From Thermospira aquatica (GTDB lineage: Bacteria; Spirochaetota; Brevinematia; Brevinematales; Thermospiraceae): 64,000 nucleotides of DNA. Below, in pieces: positions 6,735 to 24,324 of this stretch. Both the position numbers and the translations under genes were made by a program. The stretch is taken from positions 1,798,001 through 1,862,000 of the forward strand of contig NZ_CP073355.1 in the NCBI RefSeq assembly GCF_023525255.1, written 5' to 3'. The notes beneath the pieces are model-generated. The model was not told where the DNA came from and searched no databases. It saw only the letters and a program-made list of their open reading frames with translations. How positions within the stretch are numbered: position 1 is the first letter of the stretch; each line of letters starts with the position of its first letter.

Positions 6735-7379
6735 ATGGCTGTCAGAAAATTGGGTTGTTTGATGGTTATGGTGGTGTTGATAGTGGGAGGGATGTACGGT
6801 GCAACGGCTTCGGCGACTAAATCTTCGACAGCACAATCAACGAAAGGGTTTTTGGATTCTCATTACAAACCGGGTACCTTTGCGGTAAATGTGGGTATTG
6901 ATTTGTGGGCGTTTTCCTACGGAGGGTTGGGTGTGTATCCAGGGGCAGAATTCTCTCTTGCTCAATATGCTATTGAAAACCAGATTCCTTTTGATTTTGG
7001 GCTGGCTGTCCAGGGATTCTATTATACCTATGGAGTAAATTATTATTCTTACTCCTGGAGTTTTACCTCTCTTGGCGTGGGAGTGTTTGGAACAGTGCAT
7101 TTTGGTCCAAAAAAGAGTATGCCTGTACTCTTTGAGTTTCTGGAAAGGGTTGATTTTCATGTAGGTCTGGGATTGTCTTTTCAAAACTCGTGGTATACTA
7201 CATCAGATCCTTATAGCCAGGAGTATCTTGACTCTATTCGCAGAAGAAATCCCTTGGGGTTTGCGACCATAGGTGGAGTGACGTATTTTCTGACCGATAC
7301 GTTTGGTATTCGATTTGATGGCTCTTACTATGGTTTTGAATATGGGAGTGCTACCCTGTGCTTTGTTCTTAAATTATAA
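6735..7379 (+). CDS. Probable outer-membrane beta-barrel protein
   Basis: Hypothetical protein of 214 residues. It has an N-terminal signal peptide (basic MAVRK, hydrophobic core LMVMVVLIVGG, then small residues ATASA). The rest shows alternating aromatic and glycine-rich strands such as FAVNVGIDLWAFSYGG and FDFGLAVQGFYYTYG, and it ends in a hydrophobic strand (ATLCFVLKL), as expected for a small outer-membrane barrel. No specific family was recognised. AAGGAGGT lies 7-8 bp before the start. It is monocistronic, with its own promoter (6646) and terminator (7403). It resembles in style the frameshifted gene at 23587-24283. Confidence 0.7.
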   Translation: MAVRKLGCLMVMVVLIVGGMYGATASATKSSTAQSTKGFLDSHYKPGTFAVNVGIDLWAFSYGGLGVYPGAEFSLAQYAIENQIPFDFGLAVQGFYYTYGVNYYSYSWSFTSLGVGVFGTVHFGPKKSMPVLFEFLERVDFHVGLGLSFQNSWYTTSDPYSQEYLDSIRRRNPLGFATIGGVTYFLTDTFGIRFDGSYYGFEYGSATLCFVLKL

Positions 7380-7402
7380 AAATCAGGGCTGCTGAGTTAT
7401 AA

Positions 7403-7440
7403 AAATCAGGGCTGCTGAGGTAGCCCTGATTTTTTTATTT
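7403..7440. terminator. Bidirectional rho-independent terminator
   Basis: The stem AAATCAGGGCT (7403-7413) pairs perfectly with AGCCCTGATTT (7422-7432) around an 8-base loop and is followed by a T-run. On the opposite strand the same hairpin is followed by TTTTTATAA, so it can also end the convergent response-regulator transcript. The left arm is preceded by a second tandem copy of the same segment (from about 7378), giving a partial direct duplication. Confidence 0.85.
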
Positions 7441-10369: not shown

Positions 10370-11755
10370 CGAATTGCTTCATAATAAAAGTACTCGAAAA
10401 GGGAACGTTGCTTCAAAATAAAAAAGTACTTTTTAAATTTAGAAATAATCCAGTTCAAAGAACTGGAGGTACAAGGTGGAGTTAGCGATGTTTGAAAGGA
10501 GACCATTTACAGGAAACGGCGAAAGAGTATCAAAAAGCCAGCAAAAAAAAGGAGAAAAGGAGATACTGGATTATTTTTGTGAGATAACAGGTTTAAAACC
10601 GAAACTATGCCGCCAGGCTCTTGAGGCAGCACGGAAAACCATATATGTAGGCAAAAAATTACCTTAAAGCCGACATAGCCAAGAAGGGCAAAAGACCTGG
10701 CAGAAAGAAAAATTCGGCGAAGAGGAACTAAAACTTAAAAAGGTCTGGGAAATTGAAAACTACATGTGTGGCAAACGCTTAAAGCCGATTCTCAATGAAG
10801 TTTTGATAATTCTTAGCAAACGGACATCTCCACGGTTCTCCACAGGCTATAGAAAACTTGCGCCATATAAGTGCTTCAAGTATTGACCGACTTTTGAAGC
10901 ATGAGCGTAAAAAGCTTGAGATAAAAGGACGAAAAGGTACAAAGCCTGGAACGCTATTAAAGCAACAAATAGCTATACGCACGTGGGCAGAGTGGGATGA
11001 AAATTGCCCTGGTTTTATGGAGATTGATCTGGTTGCCCATGAGGGAGGAAATAGCCGGGGAGATTTTGCTCAAACATTAAATATGGTGGATGTTTGGAGC
11101 GGTTGGACAGAACTTGTGGCAATCAAAAACAAAGCTTCAAAATGGGTAAGAGAAGCCATAGAAAAGTCAAAGGAAGACTTTTGATTTACGGGGAATTGAT
11201 TCTGATACCGGTGCTGAATTTATTAATCATCCTCTACGCGATTGGTGTGAGAAGCACCAGATAAAATTTACAAGGGGGAGAAGCTCCCGTTCCAATGATA
11301 ACTGCTACGTTGAGCAGAAAAACTATTCCATAGTCCGCCAGAATGTTGGATACTTCCGCTACGATACCGAGGAAGAAGTCTACTACTTGAACCGACTCTA
11401 TGCGTATCTCAGGCTTTATGCCAACTTTTTCAACCGTTATGAAAATGACAGAGAAAAAGAGAATCGGAAGCAAGGTAAAAGAAGCATGATGATATTAAAA
11501 CTCCCTACCAACGGCTTTTAGAAAGCTCTTATGTAAGTGTGGCACAAAAGGAACGCCTAACAAGGCTTTATAAGGCTCTCGATTTGTTTCACCTAAGACA
11601 AAAAATTACAGCTTGCCAGAGAAAACTTTTCAGCCTTCAAAAGAAAAAGAATGTAAAAAACAAAAATTTGGAGGAAACTGTATGGAATTTTTGAGTACTT
11701 TTTTTTATGAGGCAATGATTCGAATTTCGAGTACTTTTTTATTTGACGCAACGGG
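10370..11755 (+). mobile_element. Insertion sequence ISa, copy A, with 5-bp target duplication
   Basis: Element of 1386 bp. The left end is CGAATTGCTTCATAATAAAA and the right end, reverse complemented, is CCCGTTGCGTCAAATAAAAA, giving imperfect inverted ends. Each end holds a second internal copy of the AAAGTACT box. The element is flanked by a perfect 5-bp direct repeat, GAGGA, at 10365-10369 and 11756-11760. Its right-hand duplication abuts the left end of copy B, so copy A appears to have landed at the end of an existing copy. The sequence is nearly the same as copy C (18715-20105). The family is a DDE/rve transposase element; the exact IS family was not determined. Confidence 0.85.
10488..11694 (+). 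pseudogene. DDE transposase of ISa copy A (multiple frameshifts)
   Basis: Reading starts at MFERRPF (10488) but loses frame repeatedly; the longest intact piece is 10858-11184. The assembled reading contains an N-terminal HTH-like region, then an rve-type core with the candidate acidic triad MEIDLVAHEGG (D), GIDSDTGAEFI (D) and NCYVEQKNYS (E), and a C-terminal basic tail ending EETVWNF. At least three small indels separate the pieces relative to copies B and C. The product is inactive. Confidence 0.85.
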
Positions 11756-18714: not shown

Positions 18715-20105
18715 CGAATTGCTTCATAATAAAAGTACTCGAAAAGGGAACGCTATTGCAAAATAAAAAAGTACTCCAAATCTGTGTATAAAATAATCCA
18801 GTTCAAAGAACTGGAGGTACAAGGTGGAGTTAGCGATGTTTGAAAGGAGACCTATTTACAGGGAAACGGCGAAAGAGTATCAAAAAGCCAGCAAAAAGGA
18901 GAAAAAGGATACTGGATTACTTTGTGAGATAACAGGTTTAAAACCAAGAAACTATGCCACCAGGCTCTTGGGCAACACGGAAAAACCATATATGTAGGCA
19001 AGAAAAATTACCTTAAAACCGACATAGCCAAAAGAACAAAAGATTGAAAGAAAAAATTCAGCGAAGAGGAACTAAAACTTCTAAAAAAGGTCTGGGAGAA
19101 TTGAAAAACTACATGTGTGCAAACGCTTAAAGCCGATTCTCAATGAAGTTTTAGATAATCTCTTAGCAAACGGACATCTCCACGGTTCTCCACAGGCTAT
19201 AGAAAACTTGCGCCATATAAGTGCTTCAAGTATTGACCGACTTTTGAAGCATGAGCGTAAAAAGCTTGAGATAAAAGGACGAAAAGGTACAAAGCCTGGA
19301 ACGCTATTAAAGCAACAAATAGCTATACGCACGTGGGCAGAGTGGGATGAAAATTGCCCTGGGTTCATGGAGATTGATCTGGTTGCCCATGAGGGAAAAT
19401 AGCTGGGAGACTTTGCTCAAACATTAAATATGGTGGATGTTTGGAGCGGTTGGACAGAGCTTGTGGCAATCAAAAACAAGGCTTCAAAATGGGTAAGAGA
19501 AGCCATAGAAAAAGTCAAAGGAAGACTTCCTTTTGATTTACGGGGAATTGATTCTGATACCGGTGCTGAATTTATTAATCATCCTCTGCGTGATTGGTGA
19601 GAAGCACCAGATAAAATTTACAAGGGAAGAAGCTCCTGTTCCAATGATAACTGCTACGTTGAGCAGAAAAACTATTCCATAGTCCGCCAGAATGTTGGAT
19701 ACTTCCGCTACGATACCGAGGAAGAAGTCTACTACTTGAACCGACTCTATGCGTATCTCAGGCTTTATGCCAACTTTTTCAACCGCTATGAAAATGACAG
19801 AGAAAAAGAGAATCGGAAGCAAGGTGCAAAGAAGCATGATGATATTAAAACTCCCTACCAACGGCTTTTAGAAAGCTCTTATGTAAGTGAGGCACAAAAG
19901 GAACGCCTAACAAGGCTTTATAAGGCTCTCGATTTGTTTCACCTAAGACAAAAAATTACGGCTTGCCAGAGAAAACTTTTCAGCCTTCAAAAGAAAAAGA
20001 ATGTAAAAAACAAAAATTTGGAGGAAACTGTATGGAATTTTTGAGTACTTTTTTTTATGAGGCAATGATTCGAATTTCGAGTACTTTTTTATTTGACGCA
20101 ACGGG
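18715..20105 (+). mobile_element. Insertion sequence ISa, copy C, with 5-bp target duplication
   Basis: Element of 1391 bp with the same ends as copy A. It is flanked by the direct repeat ATTCC at 18710-18714 and 20106-20110, which independently confirms the 5-bp target duplication seen for copy A (GAGGA) and fixes the boundaries. It lies between the thrC start and repeat cluster 3. Its transposase is decayed. Confidence 0.88.
18836..20044 (+). pseudogene. DDE transposase of ISa copy C (frameshifted)
   Basis: Same gene as in copies A and B: it starts MFERRPIYRE and loses frame early. The readable fragments are 19115-19402 (HTH end to MEIDLVAHEGK) and 19736-20044 (C-terminal tail). The catalytic regions IDSDTGAEF and CYVEQKNY are present between them but out of frame. 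Some indels are unique to this copy and others differ from copy A, so the copies decayed or were mis-sequenced independently. Confidence 0.85.
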
Positions 20106-23586: not shown

Positions 23587-24283
23587 TTAGAAGGTGAAGT
23601 TAACGTCGAGTCCTACTTTGAAACCACTAAAATTGAAAGGAACCGCATTACCATTTTCTTCTATCACTTCACCTTCCTTCAAAATAGTTATTCCCATTAT
23701 AGAAACGTCTTTTGTTGCCTTCATCTCGCTTACATTTGCCAGTCTATAACCAGCAACAATTCCAATTCCTATCTGCGGAGTTATCTGGTAACCCAAACCA
23801 CCATCGACATTCCACACAAGGGTTTGTCCTGCGAAGGGGGCTGCTATTTCTCCAGAAAGATATATAGTTTGCTGGCCGGAGGCCCATCCCCATCCTGCCG
23901 AAGTACCGACAGTCCAGTAGATTTCGCGGGTAATCATCCCTTTGTATGAGAGATATCCCATAAGAGAAAGGAGAGAAAAGTCAAGACTTAAGAGTTTTGT
24001 GCCGTTTTCCACAAGATTTCCTTGAAAGGCGGAAAGATATTCAATGAAAGGCGGAAAGATATTCAATTTTTCCACCAAGAGAGAGACCCTTTATCACTTC
24101 TATTCCAACACTTCCGCCTACTATCCAGCCAGAATCAACTTTTTTTGATTCTGCGTTGGTGATATCTTCATTGACCTTTTCCATAGCTAGTGTTGTCCAA
24201 TCACCGTACACCTGAAACACCACACCACCGAACACCCAGGAAGAAACCAACAAAAGTACCAGAGAGAGATAAATTTTTCGCAT
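23587..24283 (-). pseudogene. Outer-membrane barrel-like protein, frameshifted by a 22-bp duplication
   Basis: The start at 24283 (MRKIYLSLVLLLVSSWVFGG, a clear signal peptide) follows AAGGAGGT. The reading proceeds through DSGWIVGGSVGIEVIKGLSL to KIEYLSAF and then shifts frame because a 22-bp segment is present twice in tandem (24024-24067). Removing one copy joins it to GNLVENGTKLL and continues to a terminal strand, GFKVGLDVNFTF, about 224 residues in total. Short amphipathic strands and a terminal Phe suggest an outer-membrane barrel; no named family was recognised. It may be an on/off surface-protein gene or a sequencing artefact. Confidence 0.7.
24024..24067. repeat. Perfect 22-bp tandem duplication inside the barrel gene
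   Basis: The 22 bases at 24024-24045 are repeated exactly at 24046-24067. As 22 is not a multiple of three, the second copy shifts the frame; deletion of one copy restores the full-length protein. Confidence 0.95.
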
Positions 24284-24324
24284 GCTTACCTCCTTAAAAT
24301 TTTTTAGAGTATTTTCCTGTAAAA

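What the first reader, a model, noticed from the sequence alone, without database searches (positions are those of the whole stretch)
24024..24067. Perfect 22-bp tandem duplication switches a surface-protein gene out of frame
The duplication is exact and its length shifts the frame; loss of one copy restores a 224-residue signal-peptide-bearing barrel protein. Recombination or slippage between such repeats could turn the protein on and off.
Basis: partly seen in the sequence, partly recalled or inferred. Interest (0 to 1): 0.55.

Follow-up and report, generated by a model that had tools for sequence, protein, structure and literature searches.

The report
Gene broken by 22-base tandem duplication
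A spirochaete genome carries a small predicted surface-protein gene broken by an exact 22-base repeat; this looks like an ordinary recent mutation or a slip in the genome assembly rather than an evolved on/off switch.

Summary
Window 24024-24067 holds two exact 22-bp copies in a minus-strand gene with a good ribosome-binding site and a signal-peptide-like start. The two-copy form stops after 80 codons; the remaining 163-residue frame has no signal sequence. A congener's intact protein aligns to both halves, with the stop inside the front match, so two copies is the derived state.

The switch interpretation has no positive evidence. There are only two copies and the unit occurs nowhere else in the genome. 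In 1.164 Mb of this genome, perfect tandem duplications split 3 genes: this one, a copper-type P-ATPase and a RimK-like enzyme; in 1.2 Mb from six other spirochaetes they split none. The other two are not surface proteins. The genome's only recognisable NAD kinase gene lacks 50 bp with its catalytic motif; such a loss should be lethal, so assembly errors are a live alternative.

Best reading: a recent, possibly revertible loss-of-function duplication, of a kind described for pneumococcal capsule genes, or an assembly artefact. Reads across the site would decide.

The parts
24024..24067 (.). two exact head-to-tail 22-bp copies (24024-24045 and 24046-24067; 24023-24067 with the one-base slack)
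   Evidence: copies unique in the genome at up to 3 mismatches
23587..24283 (-). whole interrupted gene of a small predicted outer-membrane-type protein, between a TrkA-type channel gene and gltX (neighbour names by eye)
   Evidence: two-piece match to the intact 255-residue congener protein
24041..24283 (-). front piece: 80 codons and stop, with a signal-peptide-like start
   Evidence: congener residues 1-94 match here with one TGA inside
23587..24078 (-). rear piece: 163-residue open frame (TTG start), no signal sequence by eye, conserved C-terminal part
24288..24295 (-). AAGGAGGT, Shine-Dalgarno-like, ahead of the ATG at 24283
   Evidence: read from the sequence

Best explanation
A recent, exact 22-bp tandem duplication arose inside a small, dispensable outer-membrane-type protein gene of the sequenced clone and knocked it out by shifting the frame. 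Translation starts normally but ends at a TGA at the junction of the two copies, giving an 80-residue fragment and no full-length protein. Precise loss of one copy by slippage or recombination could restore the gene at low frequency, as for any short perfect tandem repeat, but nothing shows that this serves as a switch. Shown: the repeat, the frame change, the ancestral one-copy state. Inferred: that the repeat is real in the cells, the outer-membrane location, dispensability, and any reversion.
For: Exact repeat and frame change. Intact relatives in G001 (255 aa) and G004 (257 aa) carry one copy of the YLSxF stretch that the repeat doubles. No other stop or frame lesion in the rear piece, so the lesion is single and young. 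Homologue truncated by another route in G002. Two further genes of the same genome are split by perfect short duplications and have intact congener orthologues or homologues; one of them has an intact relative elsewhere in the genome. Tandem duplications are a listed class in spontaneous mutation spectra of another organism (PMC7785828, passages).
Against: The broken NAD kinase gene shows that the assembly is probably wrong somewhere, so the repeat may not exist in the cells. The ends of the duplicated segments share only 0-1 bp, which is less than I expect from replication slippage, although blunt duplication routes exist. Dispensability is inferred.
Confidence: 0.52

Rival explanations
1. 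Assembly or polishing artefact: a short stretch was written twice in the consensus, for example an unmerged overlap at a join, and the real gene is intact.
For: The genome's only recognisable NAD kinase gene lacks 50 nt including the GGDGT motif and is out of frame, an essential function by general knowledge. Three gene-splitting perfect duplications in 1.164 Mb here against 0 true ones in 1.2 Mb of other spirochaetes. Junctions have 0-1 bp of microhomology, as expected of an arbitrary join.
Against: Single contig, completeness 99.81%, contamination 0.03%. Scan with proteins of four other spirochaetes: 102 of 594 matched the own sample, 0 breaks, so errors are not widespread. The three split genes are all plausibly dispensable, as real mutations should be. 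The 3-to-0 contrast is not significant alone (about 0.12).
Confidence: 0.36
2. Phase-variation switch: slippage or recombination gains and loses a 22-bp copy and turns the protein off and on, and this feature is kept by selection.
For: Exact repeat with a length not divisible by three in a putative surface-protein gene whose remaining reading frame is intact. Reversible duplications of this kind are on record for pneumococcal capsule genes (titles in the reference list and one discussion passage of PMC4022640).
Against: Two copies only; unit unique in the genome. The other two split genes code for a metal pump and an ATP-grasp enzyme. No homologue examined carries a repeat at this place (two intact relatives cover it). 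No alternate allele could be searched for.
Confidence: 0.09
3. Both pieces are used as they are: frameshifting or re-initiation at the repeat still yields the protein or a second product.
For: The two frames overlap for about 40 nt around the repeat.
Against: I see no known frameshift signal there (by eye), and the rear piece has no signal sequence, so it would not be exported alone.
Confidence: 0.03

Closest known systems
Spontaneous sequence duplications in pneumococcal capsule genes (type 3 locus; cap8E and tts; Waite et al. 2001, 2003; only titles and a discussion passage in PMC4022640 seen)
   Same: A short tandem duplication inside a reading frame inactivates a gene for a surface feature; loss of the extra copy can restore it.
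   Different: There both states were observed in culture and called phase variation in the titles; here only one state is known, in one assembly, in a spirochaete.
Simple-sequence-repeat contingency loci (slipped-strand mispairing in homopolymer or short-unit tracts; general knowledge)
   Same: A repeat whose change in copy number shifts the frame of a surface gene.
   Different: Those are tracts of many short units; here there are two long units, and the relatives have no tract at this place.
Tandem duplications as a class of spontaneous inactivating mutation (e.g. in spectra of Sulfolobus acidocaldarius, PMC7785828, passages only)
   Same: Random short duplications that break a gene.
   Different: Other organism; no rate or reversion data exist here.

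Membership tests
Phase-variable (contingency) gene | repeat whose unit length shifts the frame | tested here: met
   22 bp, two exact copies
Phase-variable (contingency) gene | both ON and OFF forms in a population, with reversible change | not testable with these tools
   one genome of the species, no reads available
Phase-variable (contingency) gene | repeat tract kept at the locus in related strains or species | tested here: not met
   intact relatives in G001 and G004 have a single copy of the corresponding stretch; G002 lacks that part
Phase-variable (contingency) gene | repeats concentrated in surface or host-interaction genes | tested here: inconclusive
   3 split genes in 1.164 Mb: one predicted surface protein, one P-ATPase, one RimK-like enzyme
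Ordinary short tandem duplication mutation | single young lesion in an otherwise open gene, ancestral single copy | tested here: met
Ordinary short tandem duplication mutation | present in the DNA of the cells, not only in the assembly | not testable with these tools
   no reads; broken nadK in the assembly raises doubt
Outer-membrane beta-barrel protein | known barrel family or confident barrel model | tested here: inconclusive
   no family above cut-off; model pLDDT 31.8; signal peptide and final Phe by eye

The most novel reading that the evidence does not exclude
This spirochaete makes or keeps short perfect tandem duplications at an unusual rate and uses them as a genome-wide set of reversible gene knock-outs, of which this gene, the copper-type ATPase and the RimK-like gene are three members now OFF; even the NAD kinase lesion would then reflect a mixed culture rather than an error.
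Probability: 0.05. Interest if true: 0.55.

Novelty: already known. Interest (0 to 1): 0.17.

Why it matters
If the repeat is real, it is one more case of a short tandem duplication silencing a gene with a built-in route back. If it is an error, it warns that frame-breaking repeats in single-contig genomes need a check against reads before a phase-variation claim. The broken NAD kinase gene in the same assembly makes that check worth doing.

Tried and rejected
Families: both halves against Pfam and NCBIfam gave nothing above cut-off. The first genome-contig scan, with the rear half, found no relative. The mixed alignment was too divergent for the search for related loci. Single-sequence structure of the rear half: mean pLDDT 31.8, not used. 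The DNA fold of the repeat was unremarkable (z -1.94; 7 of 200 shuffles as good). The promoter and terminator scan found 1 of each against shuffle means of 1.9 and 0.9.

Rows dropped before a count: in the break scan 10 rows were flagged for congener proteins; 6 concern nadK (3), the P-ATPase (2) and the RimK-like gene (1). I dropped 4 by inspection: 2 rows (one ORF, on the strand opposite a real gene, against L122), 1 row for an ORF opposite a fliE-like gene (window 61743), and 1 ORF that overlaps what looks like a tRNA (not run through the tRNA tool). In the reverse scan 1 break was flagged, in the congener G002 (L077). The window gene itself is not flagged by that scan because its front match is too weak (34%, 21 bits). 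In the control tandem scan I dropped 1 flagged case, L065:9343-9365, because it lies between two ORFs. The low-complexity filter and the 23-bp array family were left out of the split-gene count by design.

The contrast of 3 against 0 splitting duplications is not significant alone: if three events fell at random on 2.364 Mb, all three would lie in the own 1.164 Mb with probability about 0.12 (my arithmetic).

A transposon-footprint origin was considered in thought only; four different unit lengths (14, 19, 22, 23) argue against one element. Not tested.

Paper searches. One search found 0 papers in that library holding both 'Brevinematales' and 'phase variation'. Passages read: PMC4022640, PMC11868660 (duplication not mentioned), PMC7785828, PMC11272040. 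The rest were seen as search listings only.

Full report
Check. The 22-bp tandem duplication is present and exact. Random sequence of matched composition gave 0 perfect tandem units of 14-60 bp in 3.49 Mb. It lies in a minus-strand gene that starts with ATG at 24283 behind AAGGAGGT at 24295-24288. The front part reads 80 codons and stops at the copy junction. The rear part is a 163-residue open frame with a TTG start.

Organism. The window lies in a single-contig genome of 2,515,453 bp, completeness 99.81%. Thermospira aquatica is my guess from memory for the window's species; its place in Brevinematales is in the taxonomy, but no call names the window's genome.

Relatives of the gene. The rear half has a match in 6 of 60 genomes searched, the window's own included. 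G001 has an intact 255-residue protein and G004 a 257-residue one. Searched with the G001 protein, the window's genome answers in two pieces, residues 165-254 and residues 1-94, the latter with one TGA inside. The alignment puts YLSAF of the repeat on YLSCF and YLYCF of the relatives. Hence one copy is ancestral. In G002 the homologue begins only at about residue 98, and its upstream DNA looks unrelated. In G001 and G002 the gene sits beside a gamma-glutamylcyclotransferase-like gene and not beside gltX (gene names by eye).

Is it special? I scanned 1.164 Mb of this genome (window plus 55 stretches of 20 kb at set positions, 46% of the genome) and 1.2 Mb from six other spirochaete genomes (60 stretches of 20 kb, two of the genomes congeners) for perfect tandem duplications of 11-400 bp, leaving out low-complexity units. 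In the own sample 3 split a gene: this one; 14 bp at L029:10321-10349 inside a copper-type P-ATPase; and 19 bp at L123:8625-8662 inside a RimK-like ATP-grasp gene. In the controls 1 was flagged, but it lies between two ORFs, so there were 0 true splits. Unbroken congener proteins span both other breaks. Neither is a surface protein, and the P-ATPase has an intact relative in the genome. A further duplication, 23 bp at 7374-7419, copies the stop codon and first arm of a terminator-like hairpin behind another small barrel-like gene; it is absent behind the G001 orthologue. The junctions of the four share 1, 0, 1 and 0 bp.

Doubt about the assembly. A scan of congener proteins against the own sample (330 queries, 156 with a match) showed one more real break: nadK lacks 50 nt, including the GGDGT motif, and is shifted in frame. 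The NAD kinase family is found in 14 of 14 control genomes, yet the only scored match in this genome is a 474-residue phosphofructokinase-like protein, under the family's cut-off (that name by eye). NAD kinase is essential by general knowledge, so the culture was mixed, or another enzyme stands in, or the consensus is wrong there. This raises the chance that the tandem duplications are errors too. Against this, of 594 proteins of four further spirochaetes 102 matched the own sample and showed 0 breaks, so errors cannot be common.

Mechanism and verdict. The sequence supports a recent loss-of-function duplication. Precise loss of a copy could restore the gene, and sequence duplications that control capsule phase variation are on record in pneumococci (titles and one passage in PMC4022640). 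A switch in use would need both forms in a population, which cannot be tested here. I rate a real but ordinary mutation at 0.52, an assembly artefact at 0.36, a true switch at 0.09 and use of the pieces as they are at 0.03.

Noticed in passing
L038:15708-15713 (own genome, about position 75.7 kb): The NAD kinase gene lacks 50 nt including the GGDGT motif and is frameshifted relative to both congeners; no other NAD kinase was found.
   Followed up: partly
L029:10321-10349: A perfect 14-bp tandem duplication splits a copper-type P-ATPase gene into 226- and 507-residue ORFs.
   Followed up: yes
L123:8625-8662: A perfect 19-bp tandem duplication splits a RimK-like ATP-grasp gene; the G002 orthologue is an unbroken 503-residue protein.
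   Followed up: yes
window 7374-7419: A perfect 23-bp duplication covers the stop codon and first terminator arm behind another small barrel-like gene (6735-7379); absent in the G001 orthologue.
   Followed up: partly
L023, L028, L033, L038, L039, L040, L042, L048, L055: Arrays of a 23-bp unit (GCTCGCCAACCGTGGCTCGACAR), up to 8.4 copies: 17 array matches in 1.164 Mb of the own genome, 0 in 1.2 Mb of controls, two congeners included. The one looked at closely (L033) lies outside long ORFs by eye.
   Followed up: partly
L114:16592-16665 and L115:14631-14703: Tandem units of 35 and 31 bp that share CTCGATACGC and CTACTCGGT stretches; perhaps another dispersed repeat family.
   Followed up: no
window 11689-11751 and 20039-20101: A pair of 27-bp repeats 36 bp apart occurs identically at two places 8.3 kb apart.
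   Followed up: no
L003:924-1373: In congener G002 the front of the homologous gene is missing, and the DNA there holds an unrelated 149-residue minus-strand ORF.
   Followed up: no
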